64,000 bases of DNA. Source: Catellatospora sichuanensis. GTDB taxonomy: Bacteria; Actinomycetota; Actinomycetes; Mycobacteriales; Micromonosporaceae. The notes under the pieces are model-generated. The model made no database searches and was not told the DNA's origin. It worked only from the letters and a program-made list of their open reading frames with translations. Shown piece after piece: positions 4,778 to 64,000 of the stretch. Numbering within the stretch: the stretch's first letter is position 1; each line of letters starts with the position of its first letter. The position numbers and the translations under genes are program-made. The stretch lies in assembly GCF_007483665.1 (NCBI RefSeq), contig NZ_ML660185.1, forward strand, positions 162,178 to 226,177. The letters run 5' to 3'.

Positions 4778-5674
4778 ATGAACGAGGACGGCGGGCCGGG
4801 CCCGGCCACCGAGGTGTTCGTCGCCCACCGCAACCTGCTCTTCACCGTCGCCTACGAGATGCTCGGCTCGGCGGCGGACGCGGAGGACGTCCTCCAGGAG
4901 ACGTGGCTGCGCTGGGCGGGCGTCGAGTTCGAGCAGGTGCGGGATCCGCGGGCATACCTGGTCAGGATCACCACCCGGCAGGCGCTGAGCAGGCTGCGTG
5001 TCCTCGGCCGGCGCAAGGAGTCCTACGTCGGCTCCTGGCTGCCCGAGCCACTGCTGACCACGCCCGACGTGGCCGAGGACGTCGAGCTCGCCGACAGCGT
5101 CTCGATGGCGATGCTGCTGGTGCTGGAGACGCTCGGGCCGACCGAGCGGGCGGTGTTCGTGCTGCGCGAGGTATTCGACCTCGGGTACGACGAGATCGCG
5201 GAGGCGGTGGGCAAGAGCCCGGCCACGGTCCGCCAGATCGCCCACCGGGCACGGGCACACGTCGCCGCACGCCGACCGCGTGACGTCGTATCCCCGGCCG
5301 AGAGCCGGGCTGTGCTCGAGGCCTTCCAGCGGGCGGTTCAGACGGGCGACATGCAGTCCCTGCTCGACATCCTCGCCCCGGACGTCGTCGTGCTGAGCGA
5401 TGGCGGCGGACTCAAGCAGGCCGTGCTGCGGCCCGTCGTGGGGGCCGACAAGGCGGCTCGCCTGCTGGCCGCCGGCTGGAAGAAGGTCGGCGCTCAGATC
5501 TCGTTCGAGCCGGTGCAGGTCAACGGCTGTCCGGGCCTGCTCATGCGGCTCGACGGGGAGCTCGACACGGTCGTGGCCGCGCGGGTGGAGGGCGGTGCCG
5601 TCCGCGGGCTCTACTTCGTGCGCAATCCCGAGAAACTGACGCGTGTGCAACGGGAGACGATCCTGAGCCGCTGA
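4778..5674 (+). CDS. sigJ: ECF41-family RNA polymerase sigma factor (SigJ type)
   Basis: The protein has 298 residues. Region sigma-2 (about 5-75, 'YEMLGSAADAEDVLQETWLRW') and sigma-4 (about 115-165, 'LGPTERAVFVLREVFDLGYDEIAEAVG' HTH) are followed by a SnoaL/NTF2-like C-terminal extension (about 175-298). Three signature motifs of ECF41 are present: 'WLPEP' in the linker, 'DGGG' in the extension and 'NPEKL' near the end (NPDKL in the family). In characterised ECF41 factors the extension controls activity in place of an anti-sigma factor, and no anti-sigma gene is seen here. The start has an AGGAG ribosome-binding site. The likely targets are the gene itself and the divergent DoxX gene. Confidence 0.92.
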   Translation: MNEDGGPGPATEVFVAHRNLLFTVAYEMLGSAADAEDVLQETWLRWAGVEFEQVRDPRAYLVRITTRQALSRLRVLGRRKESYVGSWLPEPLLTTPDVAEDVELADSVSMAMLLVLETLGPTERAVFVLREVFDLGYDEIAEAVGKSPATVRQIAHRARAHVAARRPRDVVSPAESRAVLEAFQRAVQTGDMQSLLDILAPDVVVLSDGGGLKQAVLRPVVGADKAARLLAAGWKKVGAQISFEPVQVNGCPGLLMRLDGELDTVVAARVEGGAVRGLYFVRNPEKLTRVQRETILSR

Positions 5675-5790
5675 GTGCCAAAGGGCTCGCCGACCTCCGG
5701 CCGGGCCGCCGGTTCGAGTGCGAGTGCGGACCGGCCCGCGGGTCTGCTCGCGGTCGGCGTGGTTTTCAGCGTCTGCCCAGCGCGGCTGGC

Positions 5791-5802
5791 TACCGTGGGC
5801 GC
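5791..5802 (+). promoter_or_regulatory. Leaderless -10 element of the 123-aa gene
   Basis: TACCGT at 5791-5796 lies 6 bases before the ATG at 5803, with no ribosome-binding site between. This fits a leaderless promoter and supports that start. Confidence 0.5.
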
Positions 5803-6174
5803 ATGGACGAGAACCGTGCTCGGCGAGTGGTGGACCGCCTGCGTGACCGCGGAGTCCCCGCGCACCTGTCCCTCGGGGGAGGGCACCGCAAGGTCGGTGT
5901 CCGGATCGCCCTACCCGACGGCCGCGAGGCGCTCTGGGACACCGACGGCACCGCGGGCCTGGAAGCGCAGGTGCTGCGTGACGGCATGCTGGTGGGGTTC
6001 GTGCCGCACATCCCCGGCTCCGAGGACTTCACCGAGGAACAGGTCATCGACGCCATCGCGCGCACCGACTACGACCAGCCGATCGCCCGCCAGCGCGCCG
6101 TGGCCCCGCCGCCCGCAGCCCCGCTGCCCATGGAGGGCGGCTTCTTCCGCCGCCTCCGCGACGGCTTCCGCTGA
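5803..6174 (+). CDS. Conserved-looking hypothetical protein, 123 aa
   Basis: I do not recognise a named family. The protein is soluble and compact, with 'RARRVVDRLRDRGVPAHLSLGGGHRKVGVRIALPDGREALWD' followed by acidic and proline-rich stretches and a basic end ('FFRRLRDGFR'). The N-terminal half looks like a small alpha/beta domain in which a helix precedes glycine-turn beta strands. Codon use is typical of the region and the leaderless -10 supports expression. It stands alone, 128 bp after the sigma gene, and ends at a strong hairpin shared with the convergent ABC permease gene. Confidence 0.7.
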   Translation: MDENRARRVVDRLRDRGVPAHLSLGGGHRKVGVRIALPDGREALWDTDGTAGLEAQVLRDGMLVGFVPHIPGSEDFTEEQVIDAIARTDYDQPIARQRAVAPPPAAPLPMEGGFFRRLRDGFR

Positions 6175-6187
6175 CCCCCACCTCCGG

Positions 6188-6246
6188 CAACTCTTAAAGA
6201 CTTGGGCCAAACCGGGTGTGCGGTAAGCCCAAGTCTCTAAGAGTTG
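6188..6246. terminator. Long bidirectional hairpin terminator
   Basis: Arms 6188-6207 and 6227-6246 pair over 20 bp with one mismatch around a 19-base loop. It separates the convergent 123-aa gene and the ABC permease gene. The stem base is CAACTCTTA/TAAGAGTTG, unusually AT-rich for this genome. Confidence 0.6.
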
Positions 6247-6277
6247 CGGCTCCGGGAGGCGGGCGCCGCCGCCCGGA

Positions 6278-8620
6278 CTACTCGGTGTGCAGGGCTTCAG
6301 CGGTGCTGATTCGGGCCGCTTGGCGGGCGGGGAGCAGCGCGCTGAGCACGGCGATGAGCACGCCGCTGAGCAGCAGGACCGCGAGCTGCGGCGCGGTGTA
6401 CACGTCGACGATGCCCTGCGGCAGCCGGGTCCCGGCGGCCTCGCCGATGAGCTGGATGATCTGCCGCTGTGCCGCGACGCCGCCGGGCAGCCCGAGCACG
6501 CCGCCGAGGATGCCCAGGGCCGCCATCGAGGTGACCACCATGACGGCCGCCTGGGCCGGCGTCATGCCGACGGACTTGACGATGGCGAGGTCGCGGCGGC
6601 GTTCGCGGGTGTTGAGCACGGCGGTGTGGGCGACGCCGAGTCCGGCCACGACGAGCAGGGCGGCGGTGAGCGCGCCGACGACGCTGAGCAGCACCGCCAT
6701 GTCGATCTCGTCGTCGTCGGGGGTGGTGGCGATGAGGCCGGCGTCGCCGCCGCCGGCGACCTGTTCGATGAACCGGTCGGCGGTCGTTCCGGGTGACAGG
6801 CCTACGAAGTAGACCGGCATCCGGGGCTCCATGAAGGACACCGAGGCCCAGTCGAGGTAGACCTCGCTGTGCACGCCGAAGATCTCACCGACGATGCGGA
6901 CGACGACGGTGCGTCCTTCGACGGTCAGCGTCAGGCTGTCGCCGATGGACTTGCCGGTCAGCCGCAGGACCTCGGCCCCGACGGCGGCCTCCCCGGCGCC
7001 GCTGATCCAGCGGCCTTCGAGGATTTCGTAGCCGAGCTGGGCCGAGTCGCCGCGGTAGGCGTTCAGGTCGACGTTCTCGGTGATCCCGGCGACGGCCGCG
7101 TCGCCGTAGAACAAGGTGGTGACGTACCGCGCGCCGGGTATGCCCCGCACGAACGCTTCCACCTCGGGGTCGGTCATCCGGGTGCCCTCCGGCTGGCGGC
7201 GGGCCTCGCCCTCCACCTCCGTGGGTCCGCCCGGCGGCGGGTTCATGACCTGCACCTGGACGTGGTCGGCGCGGACGAGCGCGTCGTTCCAGCGGCCCGC
7301 CGACTCGGTCAGGCCGATGGAGAACACCACGGTGGCGCTGCCGAGCACCACCGCGAGCAGGGTGAGCAGGGTCCGGGCAGGGCGTACGACGGGCAGGGCC
7401 AGGCCGAGGCTGACCGCGCGGGGCAGCCGGGAGCGGGACAGCAGCCGCTGCACGGCGCGGCCCCGGCCGGTGGGGGAGGCGACGGCGGACAGTGCGGCCG
7501 TCGCGGTAGTCCGGCCCGCGCGCAGGGCCGGGACCAGGGCCGTGACCGCCACGAGCACCGGGACGGCGACGAGCACGGCGACGGTCAGCACAGGGGACGG
7601 CGTCGTGTCGAGGCCGAGTACGTAGACGTTGTTCTGGAACTGTTCGAGCAGCCAGGAGGTGCCCAGGTTGCCCAGGACCGCGCCGACCGCGCAGCCGATC
7701 AACGCCGGGCCGGTCATCATCAGCAGGTACACGGCGGTGACCTGGCCCGGGGTGAAACCGATCGCCTTGAGCACCCCGATGCTCCGGTATCCGGCGATGA
7801 CGGCGCCACTGACCACGTTTCCGATGACCAGCACCGCGACGATCAGGGACAGCACGGCGAAGACGGTGAGGAACGAACTGAGCGTCTTGGCGCGCTGCCC
7901 CGCCCGTTCCCGGTTGGTCAGGTAGTCGCCGGTGCCGGCGACCGCGTCGGTGGGCACCCCGGCGGTGACGGCGGCCAGCCGCTGCTCAAGGTGCGCGGCC
8001 GTCGCCGCCGACTCCGGCGCGAACCGGTAGAGCATCTGGGTGCTGGTCGCGCCGATGCGGCGCACGTCGTCGGGCCGCATCCACGCGTCGGCGCTCTGGG
8101 TGACCGAGTAGGCGACGCCGACGACGGTCGCGGTGCCGAGGTTCGGCAGCGTGTAGGTGCGGCCGAGGATCCGCCCCGGGTCGGGTCCCCAACGCAGATG
8201 GGTGCCGACGACGATCTCGCCGGTGGCGGTCGCCCACCGCCCGTGGGTCAGCCGGAGCTGGTCCGCGCCGCCGCCGGGCTCGGCCCGTCCGGCGATGCGC
8301 ATCGGCCCGGCGCCCATCTGCATGCCGTTCTGCAGCTGCGCGCTCGCCATCGGGAAGGGCCCGGAGGCGGCCACGACGCCGTCGGCCTGCGCGGTGGCGC
8401 CGACGCGGTCGTCGGTGATCTTCGTGCTGTCGTACAGGACCGTTGCGTGCGCACCGTGGAGCTGTGCGAACGTGCGGTCGAACGGGCCGGTTACGGCCGC
8501 GAGCAGGGCGATGCCGATCAGCAGCGCGGCCGTGCACAGGGTGACGATGACGCCGATGAGCACGGTCTGCCCGCGGCGGCGACGGACGGCGGCGCGGGCG
8601 ATGCTCCAGGTCGCGCCCAT
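6278..8620 (-). CDS. FtsX/MacB-type ABC transporter permease
   Basis: The permease has 780 residues from the ATG at 8620; the reading frame continues open far upstream but that part is shadow. Architecture: an N-terminal helix ('TVLIGVIVTLCTAALLIGIALLAAV'), an extracytoplasmic MacB-like domain (about 50-250), three helices of a first FtsX domain (about 265-400), a linker with a second signal-like helix (about 430-455), a second extracytoplasmic domain, and a C-terminal FtsX domain (about 640-775). This two-FtsX layout is common in actinobacterial exporters of peptides, lipids or antibiotics. The start overlaps the ATPase stop by one base (TGATG), giving translational coupling. The substrate is unknown. 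Confidence 0.9.
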   Translation of the reverse strand: MGATWSIARAAVRRRRGQTVLIGVIVTLCTAALLIGIALLAAVTGPFDRTFAQLHGAHATVLYDSTKITDDRVGATAQADGVVAASGPFPMASAQLQNGMQMGAGPMRIAGRAEPGGGADQLRLTHGRWATATGEIVVGTHLRWGPDPGRILGRTYTLPNLGTATVVGVAYSVTQSADAWMRPDDVRRIGATSTQMLYRFAPESAATAAHLEQRLAAVTAGVPTDAVAGTGDYLTNRERAGQRAKTLSSFLTVFAVLSLIVAVLVIGNVVSGAVIAGYRSIGVLKAIGFTPGQVTAVYLLMMTGPALIGCAVGAVLGNLGTSWLLEQFQNNVYVLGLDTTPSPVLTVAVLVAVPVLVAVTALVPALRAGRTTATAALSAVASPTGRGRAVQRLLSRSRLPRAVSLGLALPVVRPARTLLTLLAVVLGSATVVFSIGLTESAGRWNDALVRADHVQVQVMNPPPGGPTEVEGEARRQPEGTRMTDPEVEAFVRGIPGARYVTTLFYGDAAVAGITENVDLNAYRGDSAQLGYEILEGRWISGAGEAAVGAEVLRLTGKSIGDSLTLTVEGRTVVVRIVGEIFGVHSEVYLDWASVSFMEPRMPVYFVGLSPGTTADRFIEQVAGGGDAGLIATTPDDDEIDMAVLLSVVGALTAALLVVAGLGVAHTAVLNTRERRRDLAIVKSVGMTPAQAAVMVVTSMAALGILGGVLGLPGGVAAQRQIIQLIGEAAGTRLPQGIVDVYTAPQLAVLLLSGVLIAVLSALLPARQAARISTAEALHTE

Positions 8621-56841: not shown

Positions 56842-57765
56842 ATGACGATCGGCTCCCACATCACGACGTTCGCCGGCCGACCCGTTGCGGAATATCCCGC
56901 CGACCTGGGCAAAGCCTCCCGCGCAGGCACCGCCTGGCGTTTGGAGGACCCGGACTACGACGACACCGGCGAGTTCCTGGTGCGACTGGAGGCACTGGCC
57001 GCGGAGGACTGGGCCGACCAGGTCGGCGCGCTGGTCATCGGCAACTGGGGCGGCGCCTATGACAGCGCCCCGCCGATCGGGCGGATCGTCGCCGCACTGC
57101 CGCGGTTCCCCCGCCTGCGCGCGCTGTTCCTGGGCGAGATCACGTACGAGGAGTGTGAGATCTCCTGGATCCAGCACACCGACATCACCCCGCTGCTGGA
57201 GGCGCTGCCGCAGCTGGAGGTGCTGACCGTGCGCGGGGCCACGGATCTGAGCCTCAAGCCGGTGCGGCACATGTCGCTGCGCGAGCTGACCATCGAATCC
57301 GGTGGCCTGCCCGCCGACGTGGTGCGCGCCGTCGGCGAGTGCGACCTGCCCGCGCTGACCCATCTGGAGCTGTGGCTCGGCACCGACAACTACGGTGGCG
57401 ACGCCGACGTGGCAGACCTGGCGCCGATCCTGTCCGGCGCCCGGCTGCCCGCGCTCACCTCGCTCGCCCTGCGCGACGCCGAGATCGCCGACCTGGTCGC
57501 CGTGGCGCTGGCCGGTGCGCCGGTGGTCGCCCGGCTGCAGGCGCTTGACCTGTCGCTCGGCATGCTCGGTGACGACGGCGCGGCCGCGCTGCTGGCCGGC
57601 CAGCCGCTCACCCACCTGCGCAAACTGGACCTGCACCACCACTTCATCGGCCCGGCGGTGATCGAGCGGCTGACCGCCGAACTCGGCGCCGCGGGCGTGG
57701 AGCTGGACGTCTCCGGGGCCGACGCCCGCCACCGGAACGACCGCTACATCGCGGTCTCCGAGTAG
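56842..57765 (+). CDS. STM4015 family leucine-rich protein
   Basis: The 307-residue protein has a short N-terminal part ('HITTFAGRPVAEYPADLGKASRAGTAWRLEDPDYD') and leucine-rich repeats from about 75 ('LPRFPRLRALFLGEITYEECEISWIQHTDITPLLEALPQLEVLTVRG', 'LPALTHLELWLG', 'LPALTSLALRDAEIADLVAVAL', 'LQALDLSLGMLGDDGAAALL', 'LTHLRKLDLHHHFIGP'). This matches the STM4015 family, the fixed companion of STM4011-4014 genes. LRR proteins typically bind other proteins, so it may recruit a substrate. The ATG at 56842 has a GGAGG site. The next gene begins at the base after its stop. Confidence 0.88.
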   Translation: MTIGSHITTFAGRPVAEYPADLGKASRAGTAWRLEDPDYDDTGEFLVRLEALAAEDWADQVGALVIGNWGGAYDSAPPIGRIVAALPRFPRLRALFLGEITYEECEISWIQHTDITPLLEALPQLEVLTVRGATDLSLKPVRHMSLRELTIESGGLPADVVRAVGECDLPALTHLELWLGTDNYGGDADVADLAPILSGARLPALTSLALRDAEIADLVAVALAGAPVVARLQALDLSLGMLGDDGAAALLAGQPLTHLRKLDLHHHFIGPAVIERLTAELGAAGVELDVSGADARHRNDRYIAVSE

Positions 57766-58842
57766 ATGCACCTCACCGTCGTCGGCAACCCCGGCCACCG
57801 CCGGGTCACCCTGTTCACCGCCGCCGCGGTGCGCGCCGGGCTGGCCGAACCCGAAGTGGTGTCCTGGCAGGACGTGCTCACCGGCGTCCCGCTGCGGCTG
57901 CGTCCCGGCACCGTCGTGCGCGTCGAGTCCCCGGGCGAGGACGCCGAGGTGGACCGGCTGCTGCGCGGCGCCGGCCGGACGGCCGAGCCGGGCGAGATCG
58001 TCGGCGGCCGGGCCTGGTACACCGGCTTCGCCGCCGCCCTGGACCGGGTCGCCGACGCCGCCCGCGACCAGGGCGCGCATCTGCTCGCCGATCCGGCCGA
58101 GATCCTGGTGATGTTCGACAAGGCGGCCTGCCACGCCCGGCTGCTCGCGGCCGGCATCCCCGTGCCCGCGGCGCTGCCCCGATCCCCGGCGAGCTGGGCG
58201 CAGCTGCGGTCGTGGCTGGACGAGACGGGCTGGCGGCGGGTGTTCGTCAAGCCGTGCCACGGCTCGTCCGCGTCCGGGGTGATCGCGCTGCAGCTCGGCA
58301 GCGGCGGCCGGATCCTGGCCACCACTTCCGTGGAACTGTCCGGCGGGCGGCTGTACAACTCGCTGCGGGTGCGGCACTACCGCGACGAGCGCGACGTCGC
58401 GGCGATCGTGGACCGGCTGGCCCCCGACGGGCTGCAGGTGCAGCGCTGGCTGCCCAAGGCCGGGCTGGACGGTCGCGTCGTGGACCTGCGCGTGGTGACG
58501 GTGGCGGGCGAGCCGTCGCACGTGGTGGTGCGCGGCAGCCGCTCGCCGATGACGAACCTGCATCTGGGCGGCGTACGCGAGGATCTGTGCGCGCTGCGCG
58601 CCGCGGCCGGTCGGCACTACGCCGAAGGCCTGGCGACCTGCCGCGCCGTCGCCGCATGCTTTCCCGGCAGCCTGCACACCGGCGTCGACCTGATGTTCGC
58701 GGCGGGCTGGCGCTCGCACGCGGTCGCCGAGGTCAACGCGTTCGGCGACCTGCTGCCGGGCCTGCACGTCGACGGCCGCGACACGTACGACGCCGAGGTG
58801 GCGGCCCTCCTCACCCGCGAACGCGCCGGCGCACCAGCATGA
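57766..58842 (+). CDS. STM4014 family ATP-grasp-like protein
   Basis: The 358-residue protein has an N-terminal alpha/beta domain ('LTVVGNPGHRRVTLFTAAAVRAGLAEPEVVSWQDVL') and an ATP-grasp-like core with 'MFDKAACHARLLAAGIPVPAALPRSPASWAQLRSWLDETGWRRVFVKPCHGSSASGVIALQL' (Lys and Gly-rich loop), 'VQRWLPKAGLDGRVVDLRVVTVAGEPSHVVVRGSRSPMTNLHLGG' and 'GVDLMFAAGWRSHAVAEVNAFGDLLPGL' (metal-binding E-x-N). ATP-grasp enzymes ligate carboxylates to amines or thiols through acyl phosphates. Its stop overlaps the start of a 48-codon frame (ATGA). Confidence 0.88.
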   Translation: MHLTVVGNPGHRRVTLFTAAAVRAGLAEPEVVSWQDVLTGVPLRLRPGTVVRVESPGEDAEVDRLLRGAGRTAEPGEIVGGRAWYTGFAAALDRVADAARDQGAHLLADPAEILVMFDKAACHARLLAAGIPVPAALPRSPASWAQLRSWLDETGWRRVFVKPCHGSSASGVIALQLGSGGRILATTSVELSGGRLYNSLRVRHYRDERDVAAIVDRLAPDGLQVQRWLPKAGLDGRVVDLRVVTVAGEPSHVVVRGSRSPMTNLHLGGVREDLCALRAAAGRHYAEGLATCRAVAACFPGSLHTGVDLMFAAGWRSHAVAEVNAFGDLLPGLHVDGRDTYDAEVAALLTRERAGAPA

Positions 58843-58985
58843 CCGACCCCACCCGACCCGCTTGCGAGCCGGGCGTTCACCCGAAGGCGACTTTGCAGTT
58901 GCGGGGAAACTGCATGAATCAGGGCGGCGGTTCGTGCAGTTTCCCTGAAACTGCAGAGCCCGACCGCGGGGAGGGCACGGCGTGA
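58839..58985 (+). CDS. 48-codon bridging ORF, possible small peptide
   Basis: This frame exactly fills the gap between the STM4014-like and STM4013-like genes. Its ATG overlaps the upstream stop (ATGA, 58839-58842) and its TGA overlaps the next start (GTGA, 58982-58985). The peptide begins MTDPTRPACEPG, contains GNCMNQGGGSCSFPETAE and has three cysteines (9, 25, 33). A large inverted repeat lies inside it. It may be a peptide acted on by the radical SAM/ATP-grasp enzymes, or only an in-frame intercistronic palindrome that keeps translation coupled. The antisense strand reads a similar GNC...SCSFP peptide because of the palindrome, which favours the repeat explanation. Confidence 0.35.
   Translation: MTDPTRPACEPGVHPKATLQLRGNCMNQGGGSCSFPETAEPDRGEGTA
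58895..58954. repeat. Large inverted repeat inside the STM401x operon
   Basis: Arms 58895-58914 and 58935-58954 match at 18 of 20 positions. The form (GGGAAACTGCA/TGCAGTTTCCC) and position within an operon suggest an attenuator, an mRNA processing site or a dispersed palindromic repeat. Confidence 0.6.
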
Positions 58986-59797
58986 GCGTGGACATGGCGT
59001 CGTTGGTGGGGACGCACGACATTGCGCTGGTCACGGTCGACACCTTGCGGTACGACGTCGCGGCGGAGGAAGCGGCGGCCGGGCGCACGCCGAACGTGGC
59101 CCAGGTGCTGCCCGGTGGGCGGTGGGAGCCTCGGCATACGCCCGCGAGCTTCACCTATGCCGCGCACCACGCGTTCTTCGCGGGGTTCCTGCCGACGCCG
59201 GTGACCCCGGGGCGGCACGAGCGGCTGTTCGCGGCCCGGTTTCCCGGCAGCGAGACCACCGCCGACGGCACCTGGGTGTTCGACGCGCCGGACCTGGTCA
59301 CCGGGCTGGCCCGGGTCGGCTACCACACGCTGTGCCTGGGCGGCGTCGGCTTCTTCAACCGGCTCTCGCCGCTGGGCAGCGTGCTGCCGGACATGTTCGC
59401 CGAGGACCACTGGCGGCCCGAGTTCGGCGTGACCGAACCGGACTCCCTGCGCCACCAGCTCGACCAACTCGAAGTGAGCGTGGTCGCCGCGCCCGCGGCC
59501 CGGCCCTTGTTCACGTTCCTCAACATCTCGGCCCTGCACCAGCCCAACCGGCACTACCTGCCCGGCGCGGCCGAGGACGGCCCGGACAGCCACGCGGCCG
59601 CGCTGCGTTACGTCGACACCCTGCTGCCGCGCCTGTTCGAGCTGCTCACCTGGCGTCGGCGGCCGTGTTTCACGGTGCTGTGCGCGGACCACGGCACCGC
59701 GTACGGCGAGGACGGCCACCAGGGGCACCGGGTCGGCCACGATGTGGTGTGGACGGTGCCGTACGCCGAGTTCACGCTGTCGCCGGGGGAATGGTGA
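58982..59797 (+). CDS. STM4013/SEN3800 family alkaline-phosphatase-fold hydrolase
   Basis: The 271-residue protein of the sulphatase/alkaline-phosphatase superfamily has metal ligands in 'LVTVDTLRYD' (D20, D25) and 'CADHGTAYGEDGHQGHR' (D236, H237, H246/H249). The sulphatase C/S-x-P-x-R formylglycine motif is absent; instead 'HTPASFTYAAHHAFFAG' offers S56/T58 as nucleophile, as in phosphatases and phosphotransferases. No signal peptide is seen. It would hydrolyse or transfer a phospho- or sulpho-group on the product of the neighbouring enzymes. GTG 58982 is coupled to the preceding small frame; ATG 58994 is an alternative. Confidence 0.86.
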   Translation: MSVDMASLVGTHDIALVTVDTLRYDVAAEEAAAGRTPNVAQVLPGGRWEPRHTPASFTYAAHHAFFAGFLPTPVTPGRHERLFAARFPGSETTADGTWVFDAPDLVTGLARVGYHTLCLGGVGFFNRLSPLGSVLPDMFAEDHWRPEFGVTEPDSLRHQLDQLEVSVVAAPAARPLFTFLNISALHQPNRHYLPGAAEDGPDSHAAALRYVDTLLPRLFELLTWRRRPCFTVLCADHGTAYGEDGHQGHRVGHDVVWTVPYAEFTLSPGEW

Positions 59798-61149
59798 CGG
59801 TGCTCGACGGCTCGCCCTACCAGGGTTACCTGTACGCGTACCCGCACAAGACGGCGTACCGGCCGCTGCGGCCGCGCCCGGCGCTGCGCGACGTGTGGGC
59901 CGGGCAGCCCCGCGACGCCCTGTTCCTGTACCTGCACATCCCGTTCTGCGAGATGCGGTGCGGCTTCTGCAACCTGTTCACCCGCGCCCAGCCGCCCGCC
60001 GAGCAGGTCAGCGCGTACCTGCGCCGGCTGCGGATCCAGGCCGAGCAGGTCACGGCGGCGATCGGCCCGGCCCGATACGTCCGGGCCGCGATCGGCGGCG
60101 GCACCCCCACCCACCTGACCGCCGACGAGCTGACCGAGCTGTTCGCCATCACTGACGGCGTGCTCGGCCTGAACCCGGCCACGGCACAGCTGTCCGTGGA
60201 GACCTCGCCCGCGACGGCGACGCCGGACCGGCTGGCGGTGCTCGCCGCGTACGGCACCCACCGGGTCAGCATGGGTGTGCAGAGTTTCCTCGACACCGAG
60301 GCGCACGCCGCCGGGCGGCCGCAGCGCCGCACCGAGGTCGACCAAGCCCTGACCGCGCTGCGTGAAGCGGCGTTTCCGCTGCTCAACGTCGACCTGATCT
60401 ACGGCATCCCCGGCCAGACCCGCGACACCTGGACCTACTCGCTGCGCGAGGCGCTGGCCTGGTCGCCCGAGGAGATCTACCTCTACCCGCTGTACGTGCG
60501 CCCGCTGACCGGCCTGGGGCGCCGCGGCGACGTGCTGGACCCACCGCGCCGGACCGCCGTCGGACCGGGCCGCGACGCGCAGTGGGACCGCCAGCGCCTC
60601 GATCTGTACCGGCACGGCCGTGACCTGCTGCGCGAGGCCGGCTACCGGCAGCTGTCGATGCGCCAGTTCCGGCGTGCCGACGTGCCCGACCCCGACGGCG
60701 CCGACTACTGCTGCCAGGACGACGGCATGGTCGGCGTCGGCTGCGGGGCCCGGTCCTACACCGCCGACCTGCACTACTCGTTCGACTACGCGGTGAGCGT
60801 GCGCGAGGTGCGGGCCATCATCGACGACTACCTGTCCCGGCCCGCGGAGGACTTCGCCTACGCCGAGTTCGGTTTCTCGCTCGATGGGGGCGAGCAGCGG
60901 CTGCGCTGGCTGGTGAAGTCGCTGCTGCGGGCCGAGGGCGTCGACCTGCCCGGTTACACCGCCCGTTTCGGGTCCACCGTGGACGAAGACTTCCCGCATC
61001 TGGCCGAGCTGGCCGCGCGCGGCTGGGCCGCCGGTGACGGCGACCGGCTGGCGCTGACCGACGAAGGGCTGGCGCACGGCGACGCGATCGGGCCGTGGCT
61101 GGTGTCGGGGCAGGTGCGGGCGGCGATGGCGCGGGCGGTGCTGCGGTGA
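59791..61149 (+). CDS. STM4012 family radical SAM protein
   Basis: The 452-residue radical SAM enzyme is related to HemW/HemN. The cluster motif C53-x3-C57-x2-C60 is in 'HIPFCEMRCGFCNLF'. HemN-like features follow: 'YVRAAIGGGTPTHLTADELTEL', 'SVETSPATATPDRLAVLAAYGTHRVSMGVQSF', 'NVDLIYGIPGQTRDTW', and a C-terminal HemN-type domain ('YGCCQ'-like 'DGADYCCQDDGMVGVGCGARSYT'). Its ATG overlaps the STM4013-like stop by 7 bases. The substrate is unknown; HemW-like proteins can carry haem, but this branch is distinct by context. Confidence 0.9.
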   Translation: MVTVLDGSPYQGYLYAYPHKTAYRPLRPRPALRDVWAGQPRDALFLYLHIPFCEMRCGFCNLFTRAQPPAEQVSAYLRRLRIQAEQVTAAIGPARYVRAAIGGGTPTHLTADELTELFAITDGVLGLNPATAQLSVETSPATATPDRLAVLAAYGTHRVSMGVQSFLDTEAHAAGRPQRRTEVDQALTALREAAFPLLNVDLIYGIPGQTRDTWTYSLREALAWSPEEIYLYPLYVRPLTGLGRRGDVLDPPRRTAVGPGRDAQWDRQRLDLYRHGRDLLREAGYRQLSMRQFRRADVPDPDGADYCCQDDGMVGVGCGARSYTADLHYSFDYAVSVREVRAIIDDYLSRPAEDFAYAEFGFSLDGGEQRLRWLVKSLLRAEGVDLPGYTARFGSTVDEDFPHLAELAARGWAAGDGDRLALTDEGLAHGDAIGPWLVSGQVRAAMARAVLR

Positions 61150-62060
61150 ACCTGCTGCTGCTCTACCGCGGTCCGCTCGCGAGCTGCAACTTCGACTGCC
61201 CGTACTGCCCGTTCGCGAAACGCCGCGACAGCCGGGCGCAGCTGGCCGCCGACCGGGCCGCGCTGGCCCGGTTCGCCGACTGGATCGCCGCCAACCCCGC
61301 CGGAGACACACTGTCGGTGCTGTTCACGCCGTGGGGCGAAGGGCTGACCCGGTCCTGGTATCGCGATGCGCTGGTGCGGCTGTCGCACCTGCCGCACGTG
61401 GCGAAGGTCGCCATCCAGACCAACCTGGCCGGGCGGCTGGCCTGGGTCGCCGACGCCGACCCGGCCCGGCTCGCGCTGTGGGCCACCTACCATCCAGGCC
61501 AGGTCAGCCGCGAGCGCTTCCTGGCCGCCTGCGCCACGCTGCGCGGGCACGGCGTCCGGCACTCCGTCGGCATGGTGGGCCTGCCGGAGCACCATGCCGA
61601 GGCGGTAGCGATGCGGGCCGAGCTGCCGGAGTCGACGTACCTGTGGGTCAACGCCGCCGACGGGCACACCTACGATGCGGCGGCCGAGGCGGCGTGGACG
61701 GCGATCGACCCGCTGTTCGGCTACAGCGTGCGCCCGCACGCCTCAGCCGGGCACGAGTGCGGCGCCGGTGAGACGTCGCTGTCGGTGCTCGGCGACGGCA
61801 CGGTGCGGCGCTGCCACTTCCTGCCCGAGGCGCTGGGCAACCTCTACGACGGCAGCTACCGGGCCGCGCTGCGGCCCCGCCCGTGCGGCAAGGCCACCTG
61901 CGACTGCCACATCGGATACGTGCACCTCAAACGCCTCAACCTGCACCAGGTCTTCGCCGGCGGCGTGCCCGAGCGCATCCCCGCCGGACCGCCGCCGACC
62001 TGGGGCGTGCCGCACGCGATGCTCACGTCTGCTGCTGCGGCAGGTACTCCTCCGGGGTGA
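61146..62060 (+). CDS. STM4011 family radical SAM protein
   Basis: The 304-residue radical SAM protein has cluster motif C14-x3-C18-x2-C21 in 'YRGPLASCNFDCPYCPFAKRRDS'. It continues with 'VLFTPWGEGLTRSWY', 'KVAIQTNLAGRL' and 'HSVGMVGLPEHHAEA'. A C-terminal cysteine-rich region ('HECGAGETSLSVLGDGTVRRCHFLPEALGNLYDGSY...PCGKATCDCHIGYVHL') looks like a second, SPASM-like iron-sulphur site, typical of peptide-modifying enzymes. The start is GTG 61146, overlapping the STM4012-like stop. Its 3' end overlaps the convergent DUF6745 gene by 38 bp. Confidence 0.9.
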   Translation: MNLLLLYRGPLASCNFDCPYCPFAKRRDSRAQLAADRAALARFADWIAANPAGDTLSVLFTPWGEGLTRSWYRDALVRLSHLPHVAKVAIQTNLAGRLAWVADADPARLALWATYHPGQVSRERFLAACATLRGHGVRHSVGMVGLPEHHAEAVAMRAELPESTYLWVNAADGHTYDAAAEAAWTAIDPLFGYSVRPHASAGHECGAGETSLSVLGDGTVRRCHFLPEALGNLYDGSYRAALRPRPCGKATCDCHIGYVHLKRLNLHQVFAGGVPERIPAGPPPTWGVPHAMLTSAAAAGTPPG

Positions 62061-63183
62061 GGCCGAACGTCCACGCCACGCCCTCCCGCGCGGTGCGCAC
62101 GGTCGGCGGCACCCGCAGGAAGTACGTGCGGAAGCTGCCGTCGGGCTCGGGGCTGGAGTTCAGCACCTCCACCATCACCAGTGGCTCGTCGCCGGGCAGC
62201 TCGACCCGCCACAGCGTGCCGCACACGTCGGACTGCGTCTTGGACGCCCCGGACTCGCGCAGGTAGCGGTCGAACCCGAAGTGCTCCAGCATCACCCGGC
62301 GCATCTCGGCGTTGGACTCGCGCCGGATGCGCGCCACCGTCAGTGTCGGCAGTTCGGCGGCGATCTCCGCGGGCATCGGCATGCCGCTCCACGCGTGCAG
62401 GCCGAATCCGTCCGGGTAGGACAGCGCCGGGCCGTCGCCGTGGTGCAGCCGGCCCAGGTTGTCGCGGTGCACCGCCCGTGGGCGCTCGGTGAGGATCGCG
62501 ACCTGTTCGAACGCCCACCACCAGCCCGCACTGCAGGCCACCCGGGCCAGGCCGTCGACGTCGGGGTGGCTGTCGAACGCGCCCAGCCAGGCCGCGTCGT
62601 GCTGGCCGTGGATCACGTCGAGCAGCGCGTCCTGCTGCGCCTGGCCGAGCTCGCCGCCCCGCGTGCCGAACTGCTCCGTCAGCCGGGTGCGCAGCGGCGT
62701 GGCCAGCTGGTCGACGAGCTGCTGCCAGGGCCGGCGGGCGGTGGCGGCCCAGTGCCGGGCGAAGCCGACCCCACCGAGCCGGGTGGTGAGCGCGGCGCGA
62801 GCCTGCGCCCAGGGGCGGGTGCGCACCTGCGGGCGTACGCTGCGGCCGAGCTGGAGATCGCCCGGCCGGACGCCCTGCGCGGCCAGCGCCTCGCGCACCT
62901 TCGGATCGCCCGCCGACCCGGTGCGCAGCATCGCCACCGCCGTCGCGCCCGCGGCGGGCGAGCCCAGCCACAGCATCCGCCGTGGCGCGGGCAGCCCCGC
63001 CAGGGAGTACGCGATTCCTACCCCCGCCTCGGCGCCCGCCCGGTCGGCCGGGTCGGTGCTCAGCCCGGTCGCCAGCCAGCGCTCGGCCCGCTCGGCCAGC
63101 GCCATGTCGGCGTTCTTCCGCGCCTCGCGCCGGTTCAGCGGCTGCTCGCCGCTCGTGCTGTGTGCCTGTCGAGTCGTCGTCAT
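62023..63183 (-). CDS. DUF6745 domain-containing protein
   Basis: The 386-residue soluble protein has a helical N-terminal region (about 15-100) and the conserved C-terminal DUF6745 part: 'LGRLHHGDGPALSYPDGFGLHAWSGMPMPAEIAAEL', 'NAEMRRVMLEHFGFDRYL', 'LWRVELPGDEPLVMVEVLNSSPEPDGSFRTYFLRVPPTVRTAREGVAWTFGLTPEEYLPQ'. Function unknown. Homologues often sit next to LRR/WGR proteins or small partners such as the gene at 63203. I chose the ATG at 63183 with a GGGAG site. Confidence 0.82.
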   Translation of the reverse strand: MTTTRQAHSTSGEQPLNRREARKNADMALAERAERWLATGLSTDPADRAGAEAGVGIAYSLAGLPAPRRMLWLGSPAAGATAVAMLRTGSAGDPKVREALAAQGVRPGDLQLGRSVRPQVRTRPWAQARAALTTRLGGVGFARHWAATARRPWQQLVDQLATPLRTRLTEQFGTRGGELGQAQQDALLDVIHGQHDAAWLGAFDSHPDVDGLARVACSAGWWWAFEQVAILTERPRAVHRDNLGRLHHGDGPALSYPDGFGLHAWSGMPMPAEIAAELPTLTVARIRRESNAEMRRVMLEHFGFDRYLRESGASKTQSDVCGTLWRVELPGDEPLVMVEVLNSSPEPDGSFRTYFLRVPPTVRTAREGVAWTFGLTPEEYLPQQQT

Positions 63184-63202
63184 CTCCCAGCTCCCGCCGT
63201 GC

Positions 63203-63523
63203 TCAGTCCGCGACCGGGCGGATCGCGCCGGGGAAGTACTCACGCTGGCGGACCACCCGGTATGCCCCCGCGGCCAGCGCGATCGGGCCGTGCTCCTCGT
63301 GCACGAGCCGGCCGTAGCCCTCGATCAGCAGGAACAGCCGGCCCGGGTCGTCGGGCGGGCACAGCATCGCCACGCGCTCGCCGGTCACCACGTGCGCGTG
63401 GCCGGTCGCCTCGCCCAGCGCCAGCACCATCCGGTTGCGCCGGTCCCGCGGCGCGGGCATCAGATCGGGCGGCAGCTCCTCCCGCGCGATCGGGACCACC
63501 AGCACATCACCCTGCCGAAACAT
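63203..63523 (-). CDS. Small partner protein of the DUF6745 gene, 106 aa
   Basis: This beta-rich protein has 'MFRQGDVLVVPIAREELPPDLMPAPRDRRNRMVLALGEATGHAHVVTGERVAML' and 'RLFLLIEGYGRLVHEEHGPIALAAGAYRVVRQREYFPG'. The same 'QGDVLLVPV...GHAH...LxHEEHxPIxLPxGxYxVxRQREY' pattern is familiar next to DUF6745 genes in actinobacteria. It lies 19 bp upstream of the DUF6745 gene, so they form a pair. Function unknown; a small binding or chaperone-like role is a guess. Confidence 0.8.
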   Translation of the reverse strand: MFRQGDVLVVPIAREELPPDLMPAPRDRRNRMVLALGEATGHAHVVTGERVAMLCPPDDPGRLFLLIEGYGRLVHEEHGPIALAAGAYRVVRQREYFPGAIRPVAD

Positions 63524-63561: not shown

Positions 63562-64000
63562 CTAGTGGGTGGGTACGACACCGCCTGTGGGGAACAGCTC
63601 CTCCAGCACCGCGGCCACGCCGTCGTCGTCGTTGCTCGCGGTGACGCGGTCGGCCCCGGCCAGGGCCTGCGGATGGGCGTTGGCGACGGCGACCCCGGTG
63701 CCCGCCCAGCGCAGCACGGGGACATCGTTGGGCATGTCCCCGAACGCGATCACCTGGTCGGCCGCGACGCCCCAGCCCGCACACAGGCGGGCGAGAGTGT
63801 CCGCCTTGGACACCGTCGCGGCGCTGATCTCCAGCATGCCACTGCCGCCGGAGTAGGTGACCATGACGTCCGGCACGAGCGCCTGCAGCCGCGCCATCAG
63901 CTCCTCGGTGACCGGGGCGGGAGACCAGGCCAGCAGCTTCACGCAGCTCTCCGCCCCGGTCCACAGCTCGGCGAGCGAGGCCGTGGGCACGCGTATCACG
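63562..64000 (-). CDS. Cof-type HAD hydrolase, 3' part (truncated by window)
   Basis: The visible 145 codons cover the C-terminal half of a Cof/YidA-type HAD phosphatase: cap-domain end 'ALVPDVMVTYSGGSGMLEISAATVSKADTLARLCAGWGV' and motif IV 'VIAFGDMPNDVPVLRWAGTGVAVANAHPQALAGADRVTASNDDDGVAAVLEELF'. Such enzymes dephosphorylate sugar phosphates or nucleotides. The N-terminal motif I lies beyond position 64000. Confidence 0.85.
   Translation of the reverse strand, partial: VIRVPTASLAELWTGAESCVKLLAWSPAPVTEELMARLQALVPDVMVTYSGGSGMLEISAATVSKADTLARLCAGWGVAADQVIAFGDMPNDVPVLRWAGTGVAVANAHPQALAGADRVTASNDDDGVAAVLEELFPTGGVVPTH

What the first reader, a model, noticed from the sequence alone, without database searches (positions are those of the whole stretch)
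56842..62060. Complete STM4015-4014-4013-4012-4011-type cassette with two radical SAM enzymes
Five coupled genes encode an LRR protein, an ATP-grasp-like protein, a phosphatase-fold hydrolase without formylglycine motif, a HemW-like radical SAM enzyme and a second radical SAM enzyme with an extra C-terminal cysteine cluster. The set is conserved from Salmonella to actinobacteria but has no described function that I know of. The enzyme combination (radical chemistry, ATP-driven ligation, phospho/sulpho transfer, LRR recognition) looks like a peptide or small-molecule modification system.
Basis: partly seen in the sequence, partly recalled or inferred. Interest (0 to 1): 0.85.

Follow-up and report, generated by a model that had tools for sequence, protein, structure and literature searches.

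The report
LRR carrier with invariant glutamate tail
A widespread bacterial five-gene set of unknown function appears to use a leucine-rich-repeat protein, whose chain ends in the same glutamate tail in every intact copy seen, as the substrate or handle for an amino-acid-joining enzyme and perhaps for two radical enzymes, which makes its chemistry directly testable.

Summary
The cassette is real and complete: all five genes exceed the NCBIfam cut-offs for STM4015, 4014, 4013, 4012 and 4011. The five families are over cut-off in exactly the same 19 of 197 sampled Actinomycetes genomes. No function was found in the library searched.

New finding: the LRR protein STM4015 ends in a conserved heptapeptide, about R-[YF]-x-A-V-[S/A/G/T]-E-COOH, after a variable acidic linker. 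The last residue is Glu in 176 of 181 distinct C-termini; the five others are frame-disrupted or wrong-frame ORFs. This holds for tandem copies, for four copies outside the cassette, and for Deinococcus, Paenibacillus, Methylobacterium, Salmonella, E. coli and Bacteroides relatives. The ATP-grasp protein STM4014 models at pLDDT 94; its nine best PDB entries are all LysX, ArgX or RimK, ligases that act on a protein's C-terminal Glu.

Best reading: STM4014 ligates an amine, probably an amino acid, onto the LRR protein's C-terminal Glu, as LysX does with LysW; the radical SAM enzymes, the NPP-like STM4013 and often a HAD phosphatase then act on that tail. The ligation is inferred but well supported; the later steps are speculative.

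The parts
56842..57765 (+). STM4015-family LRR protein, 307 aa; LRR body, acidic linker, C-terminal tail RYIAVSE
   Evidence: NF038076 357.6 bits; profile of the family matches solved structure 2RA8, E 1.2e-83
57742..57762 (+). codons of the conserved tail R-Y-I-A-V-S-E; the final Glu is the proposed attachment site
   Evidence: C-terminal Glu in 176 of 181 distinct STM4015 C-termini; per-position entropies
57766..58842 (+). STM4014 ATP-grasp protein, LysX/ArgX/RimK-like
58839..58985 (.). gap region holding two 21-bp palindromes of a dispersed repeat; a 48-aa ORF runs through it, not a conserved peptide
58982..59797 (+). STM4013: alkaline-phosphatase-superfamily metallohydrolase with a Thr at the NPP nucleophile position
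   Evidence: NF038075 407 bits; NPP 7n1s/2gsn E 6e-8 and 6.8e-8, and alignment
59794..61149 (+). STM4012: HemN/HutW/HemW-type radical SAM enzyme with HemN_C domain
   Evidence: NF006067 607.9 bits; PF04055, PF06969
61146..62060 (+). STM4011: radical SAM enzyme with SPASM/twitch-like C-terminal Cys cluster
   Evidence: NF038073 388.7 bits; SkfB match E 0.0012; motif counts
62023..63183 (-). DUF6745 protein, recurrent neighbour
   Evidence: PF20530 E 3.2e-95; the 9 strong hits (E < 1e-90) in 197 genomes all lie beside the cassette
63203..63523 (-). 106-aa 'MFRQGDVL' protein with conserved His/Glu residues, recurrent partner of DUF6745
   Evidence: alignment A7; gene orders; phrog_27831 E 2.2e-15
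63562..63999 (-). Cof-type HAD phosphatase, cut by the window end; HAD genes recur after STM4011 elsewhere and are fused to it in L141
   Evidence: PF08282

Best explanation
STM4015 is a carrier or substrate protein. Its LRR body is the docking platform, and its C-terminal heptapeptide ending in an invariant Glu is the working end on a variable linker (tail and linker shown by conservation; docking inferred from conservation of the concave face). STM4014 uses ATP to activate that C-terminal Glu and forms an amide bond with an amine, most likely an amino acid, as LysX/ArgX do with LysW and RimK does with ribosomal protein S6 (inferred from fold, intact motifs and partner anatomy). The tethered group and/or adjacent tail residues are then remodelled by two radical SAM enzymes, STM4012 (HemN-like) and STM4011 (SPASM/twitch-like), with STM4013 and often a HAD phosphatase handling a phosphate or phosphodiester at some step (speculative). 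One enzyme set serves several LRR clients in trans (inferred from copy number and from copies outside the cassette). Whether the product is released (LysW- or pearlin-like) or stays on the LRR protein (RimK-like) is undecided.
For: Tail: entropy is 0 bits at the last position and at most 1.9 bits over the last seven, against about 3 bits upstream, in 135 distinct proteins; 176 of 181 C-termini end in Glu. Control: STM4014, 4013 and 4011 C-termini are variable, about 3 bits. STM4014: the nine best VIA-align entries are LysX/ArgX/RimK, rank 1 being ArgX with LysW; sequence profiles also rank LysX first; ExN motif in 81 of 82. Copy number: STM4015 in 1-5 copies, the enzymes mostly single; paralogues form clades shared across species, yet keep one tail. 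Four copies outside the cassette keep the tail. Where STM4014 has left the cassette (five loci) it is still in the genome, beside another STM4015. The concave LRR face, by a register set by hand, is more conserved than positions outside the strands. STM4015 was not found without the enzymes.
Against: No substrate, product or modification has been observed. The fold match shows an enzyme class, not a reaction; glutathione synthetase is only 2 Z units below rank 1 and 0.2 below rank 9. STM4014 scores far below the RimK family cut-off. LysX's own tail-recognition motif (GSWGR for EDWGE, PMC10433800 passages) was not sought in STM4014. No peptidase for release is in the cassette. DUF6745 and the 106-aa protein also have conserved C-termini (T in 47 of 51, D in 50 of 50), so a conserved end is not unique to STM4015. 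Most tails are actinobacterial; other phyla give eleven in the fetched loci plus 2RA8. No model of STM4015 or of a complex was obtained. The order of the radical SAM steps is guesswork.
Confidence: 0.6

Rival explanations
1. The tail residues themselves are the product precursor, as in PQQ or mycofactocin: the LRR body is a giant leader, the radical SAM enzymes crosslink or oxidise residues of R-Y-x-A-V-S-E, and the ATP-grasp enzyme forms an internal bond.
For: STM4011 has a SPASM/twitch-like Cys pattern, common in peptide-modifying enzymes (meaning recalled); an aromatic residue stands at -6 in 132 of 135 tails and Glu at -1 in all 135.
Against: No conserved partner for an internal bond: position -2 is S, A, G, T or D; Salmonella and L141 lack an aromatic residue at -6. 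The nearest STM4014 structures are ligases acting between a protein C-terminus and an amino acid.
Confidence: 0.17
2. The tail is only a docking or sorting motif. The LRR protein is an adaptor that gathers the enzymes, and these act on a free small molecule.
For: The concave face is conserved; the tail has recognition-like positions beside Glu.
Against: A docking motif rarely demands one exact C-terminal residue in every copy (general knowledge); STM4014 belongs structurally with ligases that use such a residue as substrate; several diverged LRR copies share one enzyme set.
Confidence: 0.15
3. The conserved C-terminal residues are a by-product of DNA signals for the next gene (ribosome-binding site, start-stop overlap).
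For: In many loci STM4015 and the next gene touch or overlap.
Against: 55 of 134 copies are 30 nt or more, and 28 are 100 nt or more, from the next cassette gene and keep the final Glu; codons vary synonymously; four copies outside the cassette keep the tail.
Confidence: 0.01
4. The 48-aa ORF at 58839-58985 is a RiPP precursor modified by the cassette.
For: A Cys- and Gly-rich short ORF between two enzyme genes.
Against: It is built from a palindromic element with 117 matches per strand in the genome against 1 in the reversed control; a motif search over the 42 loci then held found it only in the window's own genome; the palindrome is absent from the 17.4-kb locus of the nearest relative, L043, and no small-ORF family reached more than 7 of 91 loci.
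Confidence: 0.01

Closest known systems
LysW / LysX-ArgX amino-group carrier pathway (lysine, arginine)
   Same: RimK-type ATP-grasp ligase together with a carrier protein whose C-terminal residue is a conserved Glu; in LysW the amino acid is joined to the gamma-carboxyl of that Glu (PMC10433800, passages)
   Different: LysW is small (C-terminal residue Glu54) and Zn-binding with tail EDWGE; here the carrier is a ~300-aa LRR protein with tail R-Y-x-A-V-S-E; the cassette has no LysZ/Y/J/K-type gene, instead two radical SAM enzymes and an NPP-like hydrolase
RimK / ribosomal protein S6 glutamylation
   Same: ATP-grasp ligase extending a protein's C-terminal Glu (recalled); RimK structures are among the nine best matches
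   Different: S6 is not an LRR protein; RimK works without radical SAM partners (recalled)
Pearlins (PEARL-made 3-thiaglutamate, ammosamide)
   Same: Small molecules built on the C-terminus of a ribosomally made scaffold (starts of abstracts in a search listing: PMC9303977, PMC9016710, PMC11117183)
   Different: PEARLs use aminoacyl-tRNA, not an ATP-grasp enzyme; the TglA scaffold is 50 residues
PQQ and mycofactocin maturation
   Same: SPASM-type radical SAM enzyme acting on part of a ribosomal product (recalled)
   Different: no PqqA- or MftA-like peptide seen; PqqD-like domains were not specifically searched for beyond the Pfam and NCBIfam scans of the cassette genes
NCBIfam STM4011, STM4012, STM4013, STM4014, STM4015 families
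   Same: all five over cut-off
   Different: named only after Salmonella loci, no function given

Membership tests
STM4015-4011 cassette families (NCBIfam) | each protein over its curated cut-off | tested here: met
   five of five
RimK/LysX/ArgX ATP-grasp ligases | overall fold | tested here: met
RimK/LysX/ArgX ATP-grasp ligases | intact nucleotide and Mg residues (K, ExN) | tested here: met
   by patterns I wrote: ExN-type 81 of 82, K..GS-type 79 of 82
RimK/LysX/ArgX ATP-grasp ligases | sequence-level membership (TIGR00768 cut-off) | tested here: not met
   rimK_fam 21 bits against cut-off 143.4; so a relative, not a member
LysX/ArgX subfamily | C-terminal GSWGR motif that reads the EDWGE tail | not tested
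   known from PMC10433800 passages; not searched for in STM4014
LysW amino-group carrier protein | C-terminal Glu on a conserved tail | tested here: met
   176 of 181
LysW amino-group carrier protein | small Zn-binding protein with EDWGE motif | tested here: not met
   LRR protein with tail R-Y-x-A-V-S-E; works like, is not, LysW
RiPP gene cluster | short precursor peptide gene | tested here: not met
   723 ORFs of 20-110 aa within the cassettes or 800 nt around them: no family in more than 7 of 91 loci; the window's own small ORF is a repeat. A precursor elsewhere in the genome is not excluded
SPASM/twitch radical SAM | CX3CX2C plus C-X9-15-G-X4-C (motif recalled) | tested here: met
   89 of 90 and 90 of 90 by my patterns
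SPASM/twitch radical SAM | full SPASM second half CX2CX5CX3C (recalled); Pfam SPASM cut-off | tested here: not met
   CX4CXC instead (alignment); PF13186 18.1 bits against 21.5 in L141, not listed for the window copy at E <= 0.001
HemN-type radical SAM | radical SAM plus HemN_C domains | tested here: met
   PF04055 63 bits against 29.5, PF06969 28.8 against 24
Formylglycine sulfatase | C/S-x-P-x-R motif | tested here: not met
   0 of 90
NPP-type alkaline phosphatase superfamily | Thr nucleophile and metal ligands at aligned positions | tested here: met
   my patterns: Thr 90 of 90, D[ST]LRxD 90 of 90, [DN]HG 90 of 90; alignment to 7n1s/2gsn; role of the Thr in NPP recalled

The most novel reading that the evidence does not exclude
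A carrier-protein biosynthesis of a new type: a leucine-rich-repeat protein serves as a large amino-group carrier, charged on its C-terminal Glu by an ATP-grasp ligase, and two radical SAM enzymes build an unknown metabolite or protein-bound cofactor on it. One enzyme set charges several diverged LRR proteins in the same cell, some encoded outside the cassette, so the LRR body may decide where the product goes.
Probability: 0.35. Interest if true: 0.88.

Novelty: new variant of a known kind. Interest (0 to 1): 0.75.

Why it matters
These five families are found from Salmonella and E. coli (154 of 5426 E. coli genomes match the Salmonella 4015-4013 query) to Deinococcus and many actinomycetes, yet carry only locus names. 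The C-terminal Glu gives a precise, cheap test: look at the mass of one tail peptide. If right, it reveals a carrier-based pathway using an LRR protein, opens a new source of radical-SAM chemistry, and warns that the solved STM4015 relative (2RA8), whose chain has eight residues beyond the conserved Glu in the construct, would have had the working end blocked.

Tried and rejected
RiPP precursor in or near the cassette: rejected; the largest small-ORF families (7 and 6 loci) lie opposite the HAD gene in Nocardiopsidaceae and Glycomyces. Translational coupling as cause of the tail: rejected. STM4011 as formylglycine maturase of STM4013: rejected, Thr at the nucleophile position and 0 of 90 with the motif. 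Anti-phage defence: PADLOC gave only two weak hits for STM4012 and a WGR hit for the STM4015 of L141. MFS transporter genes in 12 loci: 8 of them Streptosporangiaceae, no firm link. Distant STM4012-like genes in Rhizobium and Cupriavidus plasmids: beside a methyltransferase in the two records opened, without the cassette. DUF6745 and the 106-aa protein: recurrent but absent from many of the loci, no solved relative of the latter by sequence; not assigned a role. One apparent loss of STM4014 (L102) was a merged frame. The STM4015 structure job had not finished.
Full report
What is there. The window holds five co-directional genes, 56842-62060, each over the NCBIfam cut-off of its family: STM4015, STM4014, STM4013, STM4012 and STM4011. 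Pfam adds Radical_SAM and HemN_C over cut-off for STM4012, and only sub-threshold LRR, ATP-grasp, sulfatase and radical SAM hits for the others. Directly downstream on the other strand lie a DUF6745 gene, a 106-aa gene without Pfam match and a Cof-type HAD gene cut by the window end. The nearest relative found is Catellatospora methionotrophica, 88% identical in STM4012.

The families belong together. In 197 Actinomycetes genomes drawn by the tool, each of the five families is over its cut-off in the same 19 genomes, from 4 families and 10 genera; two further genomes have STM4012 relatives below the cut-off. Relatedness makes these 19 not independent, but at the cut-offs no genome has a partial set. 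In 17 genomes chosen for lacking the cassette nothing matched STM4015 at E <= 1. Plasmid records added Deinococcus, Methylobacterium, Paenibacillus, Salmonella, Nonomuraea, Embleya and Streptomyces, and 154 of 5426 E. coli genomes match the Salmonella 4015-4013 stretch. A contig of the viral collection, L141, from a probable Bacteroidales host (my inference) carries the set too.

The key observation. STM4015 proteins end in an invariant Glu. In a first set of 12 all ended in Glu; in the larger set 137 of 141 ORFs did, and over all loci then held 176 of 181 distinct C-termini. The five exceptions are not intact genes in the right frame: for L047 the neighbouring frame ends GRYTVAAE, L065 and L058 have a second fragment ending YRYTMVSE and DRYVAVAE, and two L090 ORFs are the frame of STM4014 and a piece out of frame. 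Per position in 135 distinct proteins, chosen as ending in Glu (3 of 138 rows set aside): Ser, Ala, Gly, Thr or Asp at -2; Val 125 at -3; Ala 105 at -4; Tyr 116 and Phe 15 at -6; Arg 100 at -7; from -8 inwards entropy is about 3 bits. Outside actinobacteria the ends are RYVALGE and RFVALGE (Deinococcus), RYPSLTE (Paenibacillus), RSIAVSE (Methylobacterium), MNAMYTE (Salmonella), MNPMFTE (E. coli) and YSPMITE (L141). The solved structure 2RA8 from Bacteroides fragilis is an STM4015 relative (E 1.2e-83); its residue 354 is the conserved Glu and eight residues follow, presumably a tag. No paper in the library names 2RA8.

Controls on the tail. The C-termini of STM4014, 4013 and 4011 are variable, about 3 bits; that of STM4012 is partly conserved (R or K); DUF6745 (T in 47 of 51) and the 106-aa protein (D in 50 of 50) also have conserved ends. 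What sets STM4015 apart is a linker of variable sequence between the LRR and the tail; I did not measure linker variation in the other two. Coupling to the next gene does not explain the tail: 55 of 134 copies are at least 30 nt and 28 at least 100 nt away from it, and codons vary. Four copies outside the cassette, with no cassette gene in the fetched flanks of 1.1-1.5 kb, still end YYTAAAE, RYVAAGE, RFPSATE and RFPSATE (L171, L172, L174, L176). One of these lies about 100 kb from its cassette on the same contig (G161), two on other contigs at least 10 kb from the contig end shown (G363, G385), and one on a contig of a fragmented assembly (G334), where distance is unknown.

Copy number. STM4015 occurs in up to five copies (L071; five matches in G349) while the enzymes are mostly single (STM4013 has a second copy in G161 and a weak one in G458). 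In the tree of 131 copies, first and second copies of several Streptomyces, and those of Deinococcus, form clades shared across species (quick method, SH-aLRT support only), so old duplicates were kept with the same tail. In five loci (L053, L054, L056, L058, L066) STM4014 is missing from the cassette; in all five genomes it is elsewhere (8 of 8 genomes searched have it), beside another STM4015 copy, in one of them (G296) on a split contig. The LRR concave face, by my hand-set register, is more conserved (1.08 bits, 21 positions) than positions outside the strands (1.71, 142 positions); buried Leu-type positions 0.52, linker (residues 280-299) 2.08, tail 1.01.

The other enzymes. STM4012 belongs with HutW, HemW and HemN by score. 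STM4011 has CX3CX2C in 89 of 90, then C-X11-13-G-X4-C and CX4CXC in 90 of 90, like the first half of SPASM/twitch domains (motif recalled), with a weak SkfB match (E 0.0012). STM4013 aligns with Xanthomonas-type NPP, its invariant Thr lying in the aligned SLTFPNH/SFTYAAH stretch (role of that Thr in NPP recalled), and has no formylglycine motif (0 of 90). A HAD gene follows STM4011 in nine Nocardiopsidaceae or Glycomyces loci and in Salmonella and E. coli and is fused to STM4011 in L141. This suggests a phosphorylated intermediate, but that is inference.

How it most likely works, shown and inferred. Shown: co-occurrence, the tail, its independence of gene position, the ligase fold, intact motifs. 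Inferred: that STM4014 charges the Glu. Speculative: that the radical SAM enzymes and hydrolases work on what is tethered there. The resemblance is to LysW/LysX and to pearlins (PMC9303977, PMC9016710, PMC11117183; starts of abstracts in a search listing) in logic, not in membership. No precursor peptide was found: 723 ORFs of 20-110 aa outside the cassette genes, in 89 of 91 loci, gave no family in more than 7 loci.

Literature. Searches for STM4011-4015, SEN3799-3801 and DUF6745 gave two papers with passing mentions: STM4013.S in a sigma54 table (PMC3844500, passage) and STM4015 as hypothetical protein (PMC2784778, passage). Combined-term searches with LRR, radical SAM and ATP-grasp gave nothing. 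Only openly licensed PMC papers were searched.

Noticed in passing
58891-58958, and 117 matches per strand in the own genome: Paired palindromes GCAGTTTC-NNN-GAAACTGC, often 41 bp apart, repeated through the genome (117 against 1 in the reversed control, up to one mismatch): a REP-like dispersed element, here inside the cassette and absent from the L043 locus of the nearest relative.
   Followed up: partly
L141:1324-2397 and 5611-7161: In the L141 contig STM4015 carries an N-terminal WGR domain (PF05406 65.7 bits), and its STM4011 is fused to a HAD phosphatase.
   Followed up: partly
62023-63523 (-), and many loci: DUF6745 plus a ~106-aa protein with conserved GHxH and HEEH-type residues recur next to the cassette in Actinomycetota, Deinococcus and Methylobacterium; both have conserved C-termini; related phrogs exist.
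   Followed up: partly
L038 (Streptomyces albidoflavus plasmid): An STM4013-like hydrolase stands in a different cluster with a radical SAM gene, a gene annotated thymidylate kinase, NUDIX and lasso-peptide B2 genes.
   Followed up: no
L142 and L143 (Rhizobium tropici, Cupriavidus taiwanensis plasmids): STM4012-like gene paired with a class I methyltransferase; in R. tropici beside cytochrome cbb3 oxidase genes and pseudoazurin.
   Followed up: no
L144: In one E. coli strain (dog isolate) STM4015 is annotated as frameshifted while the other cassette genes are annotated as ordinary CDS.
   Followed up: no
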